From positions 1 to 64,000 of the forward strand of contig JAHFCF010000005.1 in NCBI GenBank assembly GCA_023249645.1: a stretch of DNA of 64,000 bases, given 5' to 3'. The translations under genes were made by a program, and so were the position numbers. Below are positions 12,989 through 35,668 of this stretch, piece by piece. Below the pieces are notes generated by a model that saw only the letters and a program-made list of their open reading frames with translations, was not told where the DNA came from and did no database searches. This DNA is from Elusimicrobiota bacterium. Lineage in GTDB: Bacteria > Elusimicrobiota > Elusimicrobia > UBA1565 > UBA9628. Position 1 is the stretch's first letter, and each line of letters begins with the position of its first letter.

Positions 12989-13881
12989 GGCTTTGCCTCG
13001 GCGGCGAGATTGTGCGGAGTCGTTTCATGCACGAAGGAGCTGGCTTCGGCGAGGTCCGCGTCCTTCCACGGATCTTCGGTCAAAAGCCTGGCGAATTTGA
13101 CCAGGTCGGCTTTGTCGAAAAGCTTCTTGAAAGCGGAGATCTGATGGCTGTCGAGTTCCCGGCGCCGCAAGCGCCGGAAGATCTCGTTGGATGTCTCCCG
13201 CGTAGCTGAAAAACCGTAGCGCCGCTCCAGATAGCGGCGCAGGATGTCGGTCAGTGCCAGATAGAATTCCTTGCGACGGCCCTGCTCCCAGAAGCCCGAG
13301 GCTTTGAGGCGCGCGAGCTCCTCCTCGGCGATGACTTCGGGCGGTCGGCGATCCAGGGCGAGTCCTGGGCCGGTGGGAAGTTCTGCGCGCTTCATCGTGC
13401 GCCGCTTGTTCCCATACCAGATCCCTAGGAGGATGGCGGCCAGCAGAAGCCACGGCCAAAGCAGGGGCCTGGCGCGGGCCGGCGGCTTGATGTCCTTGAC
13501 GTCTTGGGATTGGGCGGCTTGCGCAGGAGGTGCGACTTCCAGGTCAACGACCGATGAGAGTGTTCTCGTCGATCCTGCCGAGATGAATTTCCAAAAAAGA
13601 GGGAAGCTTTTCTTCCCGAGATCGAGCGGGAGCAGCGAGAGACGGAAGGTCTTCGGAGAGGCGCCGGGGAGCTCTTGGACGGCGGTGAGGGCGAAGGTTT
13701 CAGTCGTCGAGCGCTCCAGATCGAGGGCGAGGGTCTCTCCCTGAGAAAGGGCCGCCGAGACTTGGATCTCCACGGGCTCTCCGAGTTTGGCCGAAGCGGG
13801 AGCGTCGATCTTGATGGAAGGCCCAACGGGTCCTGCGAAACAAGAGAAGGAAACGGCGAAGAGAAAGGAAACAACGGTCAT
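12985..13881 (-). CDS. DUF4381-like membrane protein of Bat operon
   Basis: The 298-aa protein has a signal peptide and an extracytoplasmic beta-rich domain (IKIDAPASAKLGEPVEIQV, resembling the BatD N-terminus). One membrane helix near residue 145-160 (LLWPWLLLAAILLGIWYG) leads to a cytoplasmic alpha-helical region with the line FYLALTDILRRYLERRYGFSATRET, seen in DUF4381/BatD C-terminal domains. It lies between DUF58 and batA with 4-nt overlaps on both sides. It is probably a structural partner of the VWA proteins. Confidence 0.75.
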   Translation of the reverse strand: MTVVSFLFAVSFSCFAGPVGPSIKIDAPASAKLGEPVEIQVSAALSQGETLALDLERSTTETFALTAVQELPGASPKTFRLSLLPLDLGKKSFPLFWKFISAGSTRTLSSVVDLEVAPPAQAAQSQDVKDIKPPARARPLLWPWLLLAAILLGIWYGNKRRTMKRAELPTGPGLALDRRPPEVIAEEELARLKASGFWEQGRRKEFYLALTDILRRYLERRYGFSATRETSNEIFRRLRRRELDSHQISAFKKLFDKADLVKFARLLTEDPWKDADLAEASSFVHETTPHNLAAEAKP

Positions 13882-14780
13882 CTTCGCAGCCTCTTGGCTC
13901 GCGCCCGGAAGAATCGGATGAGGGGATCGAGGTAGGGACGGTCCGTGCTGATGCGGATGAAGTCCAAACCGGAGCGCTCGAAGAAGTCTTCCAGTTTTCT
14001 TAAGCGTTCTTCCTCAGAAAGCCGATGGCGCTGCAAAAGAGCTGTGGAGGAGGCGTCGATCAGGAGCCGCCGGCCGGATTCCGGATCCTCGAGATCCAGG
14101 CAGGCGTTCGCGGACGGAAGGAGGGCTTCTCTCGGATCCGCGATGATGATGGGCACCACATCGTGCTTGAGGGAAGCCAGGCGCAGGGTCTTCTCGAATC
14201 CTTGGTCGCGGAAATCCGACACCACAAAGAGGATGCAGCGGCGCTTGAGCACCTGGACGATGGTCTTGAGGCTCTCGGCGATGGCCGTGCCGCGGTGTTC
14301 GGGCTCGAAGGCCAGGATCTCCCGGATGATGTGCAGGACATGGCGGCGCCCCTTCTTGGGCGGGATATGCGCCTCCACTCGGTCGGTGAAGATGAAGAGG
14401 CCGGCCTTATCCTGGTTCTGCAGGGCCGAGAGGGCCAGGACCGCGCCCAGTTCGGCCGCGATCTCTTTTTTGAGGCGCTCGCCGCTGCCGAAGGACTGGG
14501 AGGCGGAGAGGTCGCAGGCGATGGCGACCGTGAGCTCGCGCTCCTCCGAGTAGCGGCGCACATGGGGCCGCCCGGTCCGGGCCGTGACGTTCCAGTCGAT
14601 GGAGCGGACGTCGTCGCCCGGCGCGTATTCGCGCACTTCGGCGAACTCCATGCCGCGGCCCTTGAACACGCTCAAGTATTCGCCGGCCAGGGTCTCGGTC
14701 ACGAGTCGTCCCGTGACGATCTCGATGCGCCTTACCTGGGCGAGAAGCGGGGTCAGGTCTTGACTTTTGACTGAAGCCAC
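13878..14780 (-). CDS. DUF58 domain protein
   Basis: The 300-aa cytoplasmic protein has the DUF58 signature GEYLSVFKGRGMEFAEVREYAPGDDVRSIDWNVTAR (given here in two parts: VFKGRGMEFAEVREY and DDVRSIDWNVTAR, about 33-66) followed by a VWA-like fold. DUF58 proteins accompany MoxR ATPases and are thought to be their substrates or adaptors. The start is GTG at 14778-14780, 4 nt after the moxR stop, with a GAGGGG Shine-Dalgarno inside the moxR end. Residues 3 to about 11 (SVKSQDLTP) are encoded by a dispersed repeat, so the native N-terminus has been replaced or extended. Confidence 0.88.
   Translation of the reverse strand: MASVKSQDLTPLLAQVRRIEIVTGRLVTETLAGEYLSVFKGRGMEFAEVREYAPGDDVRSIDWNVTARTGRPHVRRYSEERELTVAIACDLSASQSFGSGERLKKEIAAELGAVLALSALQNQDKAGLFIFTDRVEAHIPPKKGRRHVLHIIREILAFEPEHRGTAIAESLKTIVQVLKRRCILFVVSDFRDQGFEKTLRLASLKHDVVPIIIADPREALLPSANACLDLEDPESGRRLLIDASSTALLQRHRLSEEERLRKLEDFFERSGLDFIRISTDRPYLDPLIRFFRARAKRLRR
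14749..14774. repeat. GGGGTCAGG repeat, copy 3 (translated)
   Basis: GGGGTCAGGTCTTGAC followed by TTTTGACTGA matches the arms at 165-219 and the copy at 7715-7742. It lies inside the first codons of the DUF58 gene and is translated as SVKSQDLTP. Confidence 0.8.
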
Positions 14781-33131: not shown

Positions 33132-33509
33132 ATGCCCGAGGGAAAATATGCCGGCCAGGAACTGAGGAAATACCTGCGCCTGGAGACGTTCTTTGACGTC
33201 TGGTATTCCGTGGTGGGCCGGCCGGAGGAAACGCGCAAAGCCTGCTGCGTGGACCTCACGCGCGAAGGCTGCAAGCTGGTGAGTCATGATTCGCTGCCGA
33301 TGGGTCTGGAAGTGGAATTGAAGATGAAGATCCCCAGCGACCCGGTCCCCATCTTCGCGACGGGCCAGGTCGTCTGGACTTCGCAGCAGAGCGCCGATCT
33401 GTTCGCCGCGGGACTCAGGATCGTCCAGATCCAGCCGCTGGACCGCTTCAAGCTCCTGGATTACGTCTGCGAAGAATGGCTGAAGATGAAGCGCGAGAAA
33501 AAAGGGTAG
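33132..33509 (+). CDS. PilZ domain protein
   Basis: The 125-aa protein has RxxxR (RKYLR, about 12-16) and DLTREG, a D/N-x-S/T-x-x-G variant, about 29 residues later, then a beta-barrel pattern (GLEVELKMKIPSDPVPIFATGQVVWT). These are the two c-di-GMP-contact motifs of PilZ, with Thr replacing the usual Ser. It is divergent from the lipoprotein gene and lies 7 nt before the DUF3800 gene. The downstream effect is unknown. Confidence 0.8.
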   Translation: MPEGKYAGQELRKYLRLETFFDVWYSVVGRPEETRKACCVDLTREGCKLVSHDSLPMGLEVELKMKIPSDPVPIFATGQVVWTSQQSADLFAAGLRIVQIQPLDRFKLLDYVCEEWLKMKREKKG

Positions 33510-33516
33510 TTGGGCG

Positions 33517-34188
33517 ATGGCACCCCGCTACCGATATGTATTCCTAGATGAAGGGGGCAATCTCGATTTCTCCCCCAGTGGGACAAAATATTTTACCCTG
33601 ACAACCGTCACCACTTCTCGTCCCTTCGCGCTTTATGGCCCGCTATCGGCTCTCCGCTACGATCTGATTGAGTTGGGCCTGGATATTGAATATTTTCATG
33701 CCGCGGAAGATCGGCAGGCGGTCCGGGATAAAGTCTTTGCTGAAATCCAGAAGCATCTCGCAGACCTGCGCATTGACTCGCTGATCGTGGAAAAGAGCAA
33801 GACGGGTCCAGCGTTGCAGGCGATGGACCAATTTTATCCCCGGATGCTGGGTTATCTGCTGCGCCATCTATTCGGCGGTGATGCGGTGAAGAACTACGAC
33901 GAAGTGGTGGTCATGACAGACTCATTGCCATTCACCAGCAAGCGTCGTGTGGTTGAGAAAGCGGTCAAGACAGAGCTTGGCAGGATGCTGCCTTCTCACA
34001 TTCGTTATCGACTTCTGCATCATTCGTCAAAAGCCTGCCTCTACCTGCAGGTCGCCGATTACTGCAACTGGGCAATATACCGGAAGTGGGAGGGCGGAGA
34101 CCGGCGCAGCTTGGATTTGATTTCCCCCGCCGTCAAAAGCCAATACGATATCTTCCAGACGGGCACAATTCGCTACTATAAAAAGTGA
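33517..34188 (+). CDS. DUF3800 domain protein
   Basis: The 223-aa protein has the DUF3800 signatures: an N-terminal YVFLDEGGNLDF (usual form FLDESG.xGF), TLTTVTT, a middle VVVMTDSLP, and C-terminal LQVADYCNWAIYRKWEGGDRR. The acidic residues on a beta strand suggest an RNase H-like nuclease fold, an inference from the family. DUF3800 genes are usually accessory and are known to lie near candidate structured RNAs. Here a compact three-way-junction element begins at the base after the stop codon. The gene is AT-richer than its neighbours. Confidence 0.85.
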   Translation: MAPRYRYVFLDEGGNLDFSPSGTKYFTLTTVTTSRPFALYGPLSALRYDLIELGLDIEYFHAAEDRQAVRDKVFAEIQKHLADLRIDSLIVEKSKTGPALQAMDQFYPRMLGYLLRHLFGGDAVKNYDEVVVMTDSLPFTSKRRVVEKAVKTELGRMLPSHIRYRLLHHSSKACLYLQVADYCNWAIYRKWEGGDRRSLDLISPAVKSQYDIFQTGTIRYYKK

Positions 34189-34243
34189 CCGCCCCGACTA
34201 CCCCTTGCGGGGAGAGCCCCATGGGCTCTTGTCGTCGGGGCGG
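34189..34243 (+). ncRNA. Three-way-junction structured element after DUF3800 gene
   Basis: The 55-nt element has a perfect 10-bp closing stem, CCGCCCCGAC (34189-34198) with GTCGGGGCGG (34234-34243). Inside lie hairpin 1 (CCCC/GGGG, loop TTGC, 34201-34212) and hairpin 2 (AGAGCCC/GGGCTCT, loop CAT, 34213-34229). It starts immediately after the DUF3800 stop codon and lies between convergent genes. Comparative searches have reported several RNA motifs named DUF3800-I to -XI near such genes; whether this is one of them cannot be decided here. It has no T-tract, so a simple terminator is less likely. The strand is assigned from the neighbouring gene. Confidence 0.65.
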
Positions 34244-34311
34244 AACCTTTAACTACTCATAGGGTAACATCCGCGGCACACTTTGTCAAGACCCAGATTT
34301 TTTCTGGTTTT

Positions 34312-35076
34312 TCACACTCTTTCCTTAACAGCGAAACATCCCCAGTTTTTGTCAGCTCTTTTTTCATTGTGGCATTCTCTCTCTATCCTGAACCCCAACG
34401 AAACAATAAGTCTTCTGAATGAGTCCGAATCGGGGGTAATATCGTAGTGTCCTTCATTAGCCTTGCCGCCATGGTCAAGGTCAGTCCATAGCAAAAGGCG
34501 GCATCCCTTTGCCGCATAAGATGAAATTAGCGAAAGCACAAATGGCCAGTGCGGTGTATGATCAAGCATGTTCCTGCAAAAAATTGCGCCATCAACCATT
34601 CCGAAAAGTTCGGGCACTGGCTGCTCTGCTTGTTGTCCATGGCAGATCAATTCGCTAAATACCGACCTCCCTAAATTTTTTATCTGCCACTCGTGAATTG
34701 GCAAATATAACGGCTCAATTATATGCCTTTGAAGCGAGACGTCCCACCCGGCGATAGGACTCATCACGCAGGGGCCGATGTCCAGCGTTGTTTTATTGCG
34801 TATATGGTCAACAAAAGATTGCCACTGCTCTTTTGAGTTATCAAAAAACTCCTGCAAAATAAGGTCACTGACATACCCTTGAGAGACACGCTGCCTGCCG
34901 GCCATGAGATCGCTATACAGTTTCAAGAAATGTTCTTGCTGCATAAACTCAATAGCATGGTTCAATTCATATTCCTGAGACACATTCCAAGTTTTTCCAT
35001 TTCTCACTGCCCTTACCTTGATCGCAATCCTGTTTTTCAATCTGGATGCTATTGGAATCAAATTGTTCAACTTCAT
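34312..35076 (-). CDS. Methyltransferase-like protein of unknown function
   Basis: The 254-aa protein has a C-terminal half that looks like the later strands of a class I SAM methyltransferase: DGAIFCRNMLDHTPHWPFVLS (motif region IV/V) and GCRLLLWTDLDHGG, then FRRLIVSLGFRIERE. The N-terminal half lacks the usual glycine-rich SAM loop, so the fold is uncertain. A GGGAGG Shine-Dalgarno precedes the ATG. It is clearly AT-richer than the surrounding housekeeping genes and lies downstream of a long structured noncoding stretch and tRNA-Gly, suggesting acquisition by transfer. Confidence 0.6.
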   Translation of the reverse strand: MKLNNLIPIASRLKNRIAIKVRAVRNGKTWNVSQEYELNHAIEFMQQEHFLKLYSDLMAGRQRVSQGYVSDLILQEFFDNSKEQWQSFVDHIRNKTTLDIGPCVMSPIAGWDVSLQRHIIEPLYLPIHEWQIKNLGRSVFSELICHGQQAEQPVPELFGMVDGAIFCRNMLDHTPHWPFVLSLISSYAAKGCRLLLWTDLDHGGKANEGHYDITPDSDSFRRLIVSLGFRIERECHNEKRADKNWGCFAVKERV

Positions 35077-35099
35077 TTTCGATCCTCCCGTTAAAGAAT

Positions 35100-35395
35100 C
35101 CTCAGCGGATATCTTCTTCGTCTGGGAAGGATTGCCGGTGGGAAAGAATCAGCGGCAACCACCCCAGCTACAAGCATAACCAGGAATTGATTGCCGCCTT
35201 TCTCCATGCCGAAGCATGGATATCAGCGGCTTCAACCCAGTTGCTTGTATGCCCCCTCTGCGTGAGGTGAGCTTACCGCGCTCTTACGCGCGGTCCTGGT
35301 GAAGCCAGAACGTCAGAGTGATTTTATTTCTGTTTCATTGCCTCCGGGTGCGGTTGCCCGCGTCTGTTGACAAGTCTAGCAAAATCCAACCGCAC
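35100..35395 (-). ncRNA. Predicted structured RNA or leader upstream of methyltransferase-like gene
   Basis: No ORF is credible here, and several stems fit a minus-strand RNA. There is a 9-bp stem GTGCGGTTG/CAACCGCAC (35348-35356 with 35387-35395), CCGCGC/GCGCGG (35276-35293), and an 8-bp stem TACAAGCA/TGCTTGTA (35169-35176 with 35242-35249). The last encloses TCCATGC-UUCG-GCATGGA (35203-35220), whose loop is a UUCG tetraloop only on the minus strand. G-U pairs beside the enclosed stem also favour the minus strand. It could be a long 5' leader of the gene at 34312-35076 or an independent RNA. I could not match it to RNase P RNA, tmRNA or SRP RNA landmarks. Confidence 0.5.
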
Positions 35396-35405
35396 TTCAT
35401 CCTAA

Positions 35406-35568
35406 CCTGCTTGTACTTATTCGGCCGTGGTCCCATGCGATCCAGTGTGGTAGGCCGAAGCTTCCAATATCAGAGGCCATTTTCTGGCCTTCTGATCTCA
35501 TTTTTACGGCACCAGGTGGGATATTTCCCGTCTCAAAACAAGCGGGCGCCCTACGCCTTCGGCGTAGG
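35406..35568 (+). ncRNA. Second predicted structured element
   Basis: A closing stem CCTGCTTGT/ACAAGCGGG (35406-35414 with 35538-35546) contains a T-G pair that would be a C-A mismatch on the other strand, so the plus strand is favoured. It encloses TTCGGCC/GGCCGAA (35420-35459) and ATCAGA-GGCCA/TGGCC-TCTGAT with one bulge (35469-35496). An 8-bp hairpin CCTACGCC/GGCGTAGG follows (35550-35568). I see no ORF, no good promoter and no T-tract. Together with the preceding element it fills the 518-nt gap between the methyltransferase-like gene and tRNA-Gly. Confidence 0.45.
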
Positions 35569-35594
35569 ACAGCCCACCAGCACTCCGAAAAACC

Positions 35595-35668
35595 TGGAGC
35601 GGGCGAAGGGAATCGAACCCTCGTCTAGAGCTTGGGAAGCTCCCATTCTACCATTGAACCACGCCCGC
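35595..35668 (-). tRNA. tRNA-Gly (anticodon CCC)
   Basis: The 74-nt gene folds into a complete cloverleaf: 7-bp acceptor stem GCGGGCG/CGCCCGC, 4-bp D stem, 5-bp anticodon stem with loop TTCCCAA (anticodon CCC), a 4-nt variable loop and T arm GAGGG-TTCGATT-CCCTT. The discriminator is T and CCA is encoded. The promoter is TTGACG-17-TAGAAT. The accessory patch lies on its 3' side, the usual side for integration next to tRNA genes, but I found no duplicated 3' end. Confidence 0.93.

What the first reader, a model, noticed from the sequence alone, without database searches (positions are those of the whole stretch)
33517..34243. DUF3800 gene followed directly by a compact three-way-junction element
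The 55-nt element starts at the base after the DUF3800 stop and has a perfect 10-bp closing stem plus two perfect hairpins. Candidate RNAs called DUF3800-I to -XI have been reported near such genes, with unknown function. The adjacency here supports a protein-RNA (or protein-hairpin DNA) unit and offers a specific case. A nuclease or RNA-processing role for the DUF3800 fold is only inferred.
Basis: partly seen in the sequence, partly recalled or inferred. Interest (0 to 1): 0.68.

Follow-up and report, generated by a model that had tools for sequence, protein, structure and literature searches.

The report
Small RNA paired with DUF3800 nuclease
A bacterial gene for a probable RNase H-like nuclease (DUF3800) is always followed by a tiny gene for a structured small RNA on the opposite DNA strand, and this inseparable, mobile pair, found across more than a dozen bacterial phyla, looks like an RNA-controlled toxin or defence module whose RNA class is not yet catalogued.

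Summary
The functional molecule is transcribed from the minus strand, convergent with the DUF3800 gene. It is a ~75-nt small RNA with sigma-70-like promoters (TTGACA), a three-way junction with a GNRA loop, and a closing stem followed by a U-run that doubles as terminator. In 47 relatives 98.5% of paired cells are kept and 17 of 20 pairs have double changes. All 47 testable DUF3800 relatives, from more than 15 phyla, carry it. In 341 genomes of the window's phylum the six with the RNA are exactly the six with this DUF3800 clade. No Rfam family claims it; the nearest is DUF3800-IX (same architecture, 31.9 bits, cutoff 36.8). Other DUF3800 clades carry DUF3800-V or -IX RNAs in the same place and strand. 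The protein is predicted to be RNase HII-like, with invariant D11, D135 and D181. The unit is patchy, horizontally spread, and often sits between hsdS and hsdR of type I restriction systems. I read it as a protein-RNA module, most likely a nuclease toxin or defence effector held by a convergent RNA antitoxin or cofactor. RNA gene and pairing: well supported. Function: inferred.

The parts
33517..34188 (+). DUF3800 protein, 223 aa, predicted RNase HII-like nuclease (D11, E12, D135, D181)
   Evidence: Pfam PF12686 E=4.6e-9; alignment of 48 relatives; AlphaFold2 pLDDT 91; Foldseek RNase HII E=3e-5
34180..34254 (-). small RNA gene (approximate ends: predicted start near 34254, U-run ends at 34180)
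   Evidence: covariance model R1, 89.6 bits at 34250-34181 minus; strand evidence
34284..34289 (-). -35 box TTGACA of the small RNA promoter
   Evidence: sequence; 17-nt spacer to TACCCT; TTGAC in this region in 23 of 48 relatives against 3 on the other strand
34261..34266 (-). -10 box TACCCT (weak here; TATACT/TATAAT in many relatives)
   Evidence: below the threshold of the simple scan
34242..34250 (-). AAAGGUUCC, almost invariant 5' end of the RNA (CC belongs to the closing stem)
   Evidence: alignment A1
34234..34243 (-). closing stem P1, 5' arm
   Evidence: 99.8% of cells paired, 7 of 9 counted pairs with double changes
34189..34198 (-). closing stem P1, 3' arm
34213..34229 (-). hairpin P2 (AGAGCCC-AUG-GGGCUCU)
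   Evidence: 97.6% of cells paired, 6 of 7 pairs with double changes
34201..34212 (-). hairpin P3 with GNRA tetraloop (CCCC-GCAA-GGGG)
   Evidence: 96.8% of cells paired, all 4 pairs with double changes; GNRA loop in 33 of 48
34180..34184 (-). U-run after P1, intrinsic-terminator-like 3' end, overlapping the last DUF3800 codons
   Evidence: run of 4 or more T in 37 of 47 relatives against 8 of 47 on the other strand
34293..34312 (+). terminator-like hairpin with T-run, possible end of the DUF3800 mRNA
   Evidence: consensus scan only

Best explanation
This is a two-gene protein-RNA module. One gene encodes a DUF3800 protein, predicted to be an RNase HII-like nuclease. The other, convergent with it, makes a ~75-nt small RNA from its own promoter; the RNA folds into a GNRA-capped three-way junction and ends at its own closing stem plus U-run. 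Shown here: RNA structure, strand, promoter and terminator signals, obligate and clade-specific pairing, horizontal spread. Inferred: the RNA binds the DUF3800 protein and controls its nuclease, most likely as an RNA antitoxin or inhibitory cofactor, so that the module acts as a toxin-antitoxin-like or abortive-infection defence unit. The RNA has no room for a variable guide, so RNA-guided targeting is less likely.
For: Covariation: 17 of 20 pairs with double changes, 140 such cells against 33+-4 in shuffles. Strand: G-U 26 to A-C 3, GNRA loops, promoter score 10.66 against 8.83+-0.14, U-run 37/47 to 8/47. Pairing: the RNA was found at all 47 loci where it could be seen; the same six of 341 genomes carry both. 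An exact DNA pattern in viral contigs hit 2 places, both beside DUF3800. RNA class follows protein clade. DUF3800-V and -IX RNAs sit in the same place and strand after other DUF3800 clades. Nuclease fold and invariant aspartates. Asymmetry: no intact protein without RNA, but RNA persists where the protein is broken, a remnant or replaced (L053; L112; L107; L101 and L108). Defence setting: 13 of 56 loci have hsdR or hsdS within the fetched flanks; a temperate Gordonia phage carries the unit beside its repressor and integrase.
Against: No expression, binding, toxicity or defence data. The window's own -10 box is weak and the simple promoter scan missed it. About three quarters of the loci have no type I restriction genes nearby, and the window's own neighbours are a PilZ gene and an unassigned ORF. 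The RNase HII match has a TM-score of only ~0.5 and the active sites were not superimposed.
Confidence: 0.5

Rival explanations
1. The RNA is a positive cofactor or processed partner: DUF3800 needs the RNA to recognise and cut a target (invader RNA, DNA or a hybrid), or matures it, rather than being inhibited by it.
For: Obligate pairing and clade-specific RNA class fit equally well. DUF3800 proteins occur as accessory RNase H-fold nucleases in some CRISPR V-A2 and VI-F loci (PMC10910872, PMC12669027).
Against: RNA copies that outlive the protein (L107, L053, L112) fit an antitoxin somewhat better, although young decay would look the same.
Confidence: 0.28
2. The RNA is a guide-bearing scaffold as with TnpB or IscB omega RNAs: transcribed with the gene and extending into variable flanking DNA as guide, for target cleavage or homing.
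For: RNase H-type fold, mobile and patchy distribution, RNA directly 3' of the gene, variable sequence beyond GGAACCTTT on the + strand. RAGATH-18-derived RNAs proved to be guides of TnpB-type nucleases (abstract of PMC11061315).
Against: The functional strand is minus, so the variable flank is the promoter. The predicted 5' leader is only ~0-15 nt and the 3' side runs into the conserved DUF3800 C-terminus. In L050, L052 and L053 the RNA lies upstream of the gene.
Confidence: 0.07
3. It is only a bidirectional transcription terminator or a dispersed palindromic repeat (REP or MITE-like).
For: GC-rich stem at the end of a gene, U-run on one side, and RNA-only copies exist.
Against: One copy in 36 of 40 genomes; conserved joining bases and loops (AAAGGUUCC, GNRA, UAG) across phyla; own promoter upstream; strict co-occurrence with one protein clade. 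In Chloroflexi it precedes the gene.
Confidence: 0.04
4. The RNA mainly regulates DUF3800 expression in cis, as an antisense RNA overlapping the 3' end of its mRNA, without binding the protein.
For: Convergent arrangement with the 3' ends overlapping in the window.
Against: In many relatives the RNA is separated from the stop codon by 10-60 nt, in three it is upstream, and the conserved parts are structural, not complementary to the mRNA outside the overlap.
Confidence: 0.08

Closest known systems
DUF3800-IX RNA (Rfam RF02968)
   Same: Three-way junction with long closing stem, 7-bp and ~5-bp hairpins, UA(G) before the closing strand, U-run at the 3' end; opposite strand right after a DUF3800 gene (own genome, L001). 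One member of the new class matches it weakly (L026, 31.9 bits).
   Different: Below the gathering score (36.8) in L026 and not listed for the other members scanned. The L001 protein falls outside the new-RNA clade on the tree. Different conserved bases (AAAGGUUCC 5' end, GNRA loop).
DUF3800-V RNA (Rfam RF02964)
   Same: Same placement and strand: minus, just after the DUF3800 stop, with TTGACA...TATAAT upstream.
   Different: Different, longer structure (96 nt) and a separate, well-supported protein clade.
Type III toxin-antitoxin systems (ToxIN; PMC8860590, PMC5772629 abstracts)
   Same: Nuclease protein plus small structured RNA in one compact unit; the mechanism is proposed by analogy.
   Different: ToxI is a co-transcribed RNA pseudoknot made of several repeats and ToxN is an endoribonuclease of another family; here the RNA is single-copy, convergent, has its own promoter and a three-way junction, and the protein is RNase H-like.
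Retrons with a DUF3800 effector (PADLOC profile DUF3800_VII)
   Same: Best PADLOC match of all four DUF3800 proteins tested is DUF3800_VII (E from 6e-5 to 3e-12); that this profile belongs to type VII retrons is own knowledge, not verified here.
   Different: No reverse transcriptase is seen beside the gene in the window; the RNA is far too small for an msr-msd.

Membership tests
DUF3800-associated RNAs (general kind) | conserved structured RNA next to DUF3800 genes | tested here: met
Rfam DUF3800-I to -XI, individual families | score at or above the gathering cutoff of one covariance model | tested here: not met
   no hit at gathering in the window and 16 loci; none at E<=10 in the window stretch; best is DUF3800-IX on L026, 31.9 against 36.8 bits
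DUF3800-IX | three-way junction, convergent position after DUF3800 | tested here: met
Pfam DUF3800 (PF12686) | profile score above the curated cutoff (21 bits) | tested here: met
   37.6 bits
RNase HII / RNase H-like superfamily | fold similarity | tested here: met
   Foldseek E=3e-5, probability 1.00, TM about 0.5
RNase HII / RNase H-like superfamily | superposed D-E-D-D active site | tested here: inconclusive
   D11, D135, D181 invariant, E12 nearly so, but not superimposed on a solved active site
Type III toxin-antitoxin | RNA antitoxin as repeats in the toxin operon | tested here: not met
   single copy, opposite strand, own promoter
Type III toxin-antitoxin | protein toxic, neutralised by the RNA | not testable with these tools
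   needs expression tests
Omega-RNA systems (TnpB, IscB) | variable guide attached to the RNA | tested here: not met
   short promoter-proximal leader, 3' end in conserved coding sequence
Retron | reverse transcriptase gene in the unit | tested here: inconclusive
   none noticed in the window unit; no reverse transcriptase among the 25 most frequent Pfam families of neighbours, list not exhaustive
REP/MITE/CRISPR repeat | many copies per genome | tested here: not met
   one copy in 36 of 40 genomes, one in each of the six carriers of the own phylum

The most novel reading that the evidence does not exclude
A new type of RNA-controlled toxin-antitoxin or anti-phage unit: a stand-alone RNase H-fold DUF3800 nuclease kept in check by a convergently transcribed single-copy three-way-junction RNA. 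Each DUF3800 clade would own its RNA class, a general two-gene design behind the unexplained DUF3800-I to -XI RNAs, often slotted between hsdS and hsdR of type I restriction operons.
Probability: 0.4. Interest if true: 0.8.

Novelty: new variant of a known kind. Interest (0 to 1): 0.64.

Why it matters
The DUF3800 RNAs have been known as motifs without function. This case supplies a clean, uncatalogued class with decisive covariation, fixes the transcribed strand, shows that the layout (convergent small RNA with promoter and terminator) is shared with DUF3800-V and -IX, and ties RNA class to protein clade. That turns a vague association into a testable two-part system with a predicted nuclease, defence-type surroundings, and carriers that include named Phaeobacter, Ruegeria and Gordonia phage records.

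Tried and rejected
Empty-site comparison: the PilZ neighbour has no match in the genus, and Phaeobacter plasmids gave no clean empty site, so insertion ends stay undefined. tRNA-Gly beside the unit as attachment site: no shared repeat of 11 bases or more found. Reading the element as a + strand RNA with a guide: rejected on G-U/A-C counts, GNRA loops, promoter and U-tail. Dispersed repeat: rejected. The discovery paper of the DUF3800 motifs and the retron classification paper are not held. Solved relatives by sequence: none. NCBIfam: no match.

Full report
Observation. The ORF 33517-34188 (+) is DUF3800 (PF12686, 37.6 bits over a cutoff of 21). The 55-nt element begins at the base after its stop and folds as described (-39 kcal/mol; no shuffle reaches it). 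Rfam has no family for it at gathering score in the window or at E<=10 in the local stretch apart from chance hits. It occurs once in the genome.

Relatives. A scan of 84,980 species genomes with the DUF3800 protein gave 50 loci, 31-78% identical where most of the protein matched, in more than 15 phyla, against only 3 of 38 genomes near the window's own: patchy distribution and horizontal spread. The closest named relative is an Elusimicrobia MAG, so the window is probably Elusimicrobiota (inference). Nearly every locus has the same element after the stop, 0-100 nt downstream. Of the 50, L029 and L046 are cut by contig ends and L056 is a gene fragment. In the remaining 47 the RNA is present: 46 by the covariance model at 58-95 bits, and L055 at 28 bits.

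Structure. In 47 sequences, 98.5% of 906 paired cells are standard pairs; 17 of 20 pairs show changes on both sides; 140 double-change cells against 33+-4 in shuffles, 0 of 500 as high; sliding the structure destroys all measures.

Strand. Four independent signs put the RNA on the minus strand. (a) Wobble: 26 G-U cells against 3 A-C, p=1.5e-5 by a sign test that ignores relatedness. (b) The small hairpin carries a GNRA loop (GCAA, GAAA, GCGA, GAGA, GUGA) in 33 of 48. (c) A sigma-70-like promoter lies just upstream on that strand: mean best score 10.66 against 8.83+-0.14 in shuffles; TTGAC in 23 of 48, against 3 of 48 with the same word on the other strand; in the window TTGACA-N17-TACCCT at 34289-34261. 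(d) A run of 4 or more U follows the closing stem in 37 of 47, against 8 of 47 for the other strand. In three Chloroflexi loci the RNA lies upstream of the gene and on its strand, so it is a separate gene. The window's own -10 box is poor and a simple scan misses it.

Pairing with the protein. In 341 genomes of the window's phylum the RNA model hits six, and a profile of this DUF3800 clade hits the same six at E<1e-95; 23 others hold only other DUF3800 proteins and lack the RNA. Searches that start from RNA agree: both viral contigs found by an exact pattern carry a convergent DUF3800. In a sample of 388 genomes from another carrier's phylum there were eight strong hits: five with an intact DUF3800 of the clade, L112 with it broken into several frames, L107 with only its last codons, L108 with a different DUF3800. 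In 40 carrier genomes, 36 have one copy and four a second match, two of these strong: L101 lies near another DUF3800, L102 is alone. So the protein is not seen without RNA, while RNA sometimes survives without its intact partner.

Other DUF3800 clades. After other DUF3800 genes of the same phylum the Rfam families DUF3800-V and, for the window genome's own second DUF3800 gene, DUF3800-IX lie in the same place and strand, with strong TTGACA/TATAAT upstream in several. On a protein tree the RNA classes fall into separate clades: 5 label changes against 22 in shuffles; the new RNA's clade is one branch (support 96). One member of the new class weakly matches DUF3800-IX (31.9 bits, cutoff 36.8), with the same three-way architecture. 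The new RNA is therefore best called a new class of DUF3800 RNA, related in design to IX, not a member of it.

Protein. The model (pLDDT 91, pTM 0.89) matches RNase HII and H2 best among solved structures (E=3e-5, probability 1.00, TM about 0.5) and a phage DUF3800 protein among viral models. D11, D135 and D181 are invariant and E12 nearly so, the D-E...D...D order of RNase HII (own knowledge; not superimposed). Published work calls DUF3800 an RNase H-fold nuclease found with some CRISPR V-A2 and VI-F loci (PMC10910872; PMC12669027).

Surroundings. Type I restriction genes lie in the flanks of 13 of 56 loci, in several exactly as hsdS, DUF3800, RNA, hsdR; among immediate neighbours HSDR_N, ResIII, methylases and specificity domains lead the Pfam and PADLOC tallies. 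Other carriers are conjugative plasmids and a Gordonia temperate phage beside repressor and integrase (RNA at 62 bits). Most loci have ordinary neighbours. In the window the unit sits in a GC dip (53% and lower in a 63% window) near a tRNA-Gly.

Mechanism. The RNA has no variable part long enough for a guide. With obligate pairing, a nuclease fold, mobility, partial defence context and RNA outliving protein, the likeliest reading is an RNA that binds and restrains the DUF3800 nuclease (toxin-antitoxin or abortive infection). An activating cofactor is the main rival. Neither has been shown. My confidence is about 0.95 in the minus-strand RNA gene and its pairing, and about 0.5 in the restraining-RNA, defence-like function.

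Noticed in passing
L001:2116-2179 (G000 contig C37): The window's own genome holds a second DUF3800 gene of another clade, followed on the minus strand by a DUF3800-IX RNA (64.5 bits): two DUF3800-RNA units of different classes in one genome.
   Followed up: yes
L076, L077, L078, L079, L080 downstream of DUF3800: Another, apparently uncatalogued DUF3800 RNA class (GGGGUUCCGNAUGGUUCCUC core), minus strand, no Rfam hit at E<=0.5; 10 of 23 predicted pairs have double changes in five sequences. L095 and L097 may carry a further one.
   Followed up: partly
L075 (G178 contig C62): Array of tandem DUF3800 genes with DUF3800-V RNAs after them (four RNAs in 3.6 kb).
   Followed up: no
L045:3940-4850: The DUF3800 start is fused to what look like the first codons of hsdR, and a diverged second hsdR start follows the RNA: the unit seems to have entered at an hsdR start and restored it.
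   Followed up: partly
L107:1460-1570: Decayed unit: only the last codons of DUF3800 remain before an intact RNA, between an AAA ATPase (AbiEii/OLD-like) gene and hsdR.
   Followed up: partly
L068:2878-3697 (Gordonia phage Kenna): DUF3800 gp54 with the RNA (62 bits) beside repressor and integrase genes, a likely prophage-encoded defence or immunity cargo.
   Followed up: partly
L058:1606-2422: HepT/NTase-substrate and nucleotidyltransferase pair (HEPN-MNT-like toxin-antitoxin) next to the DUF3800 unit of a family relative.
   Followed up: no
window 33500-35600: GC dip to 44-53% in a 63% GC window, ending near tRNA-Gly (35595-35668, minus): small foreign segment; no attachment repeat found.
   Followed up: partly
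window 13872-14339: ARAGORN reports a permuted tmRNA that Rfam does not confirm; probably a false positive.
   Followed up: no
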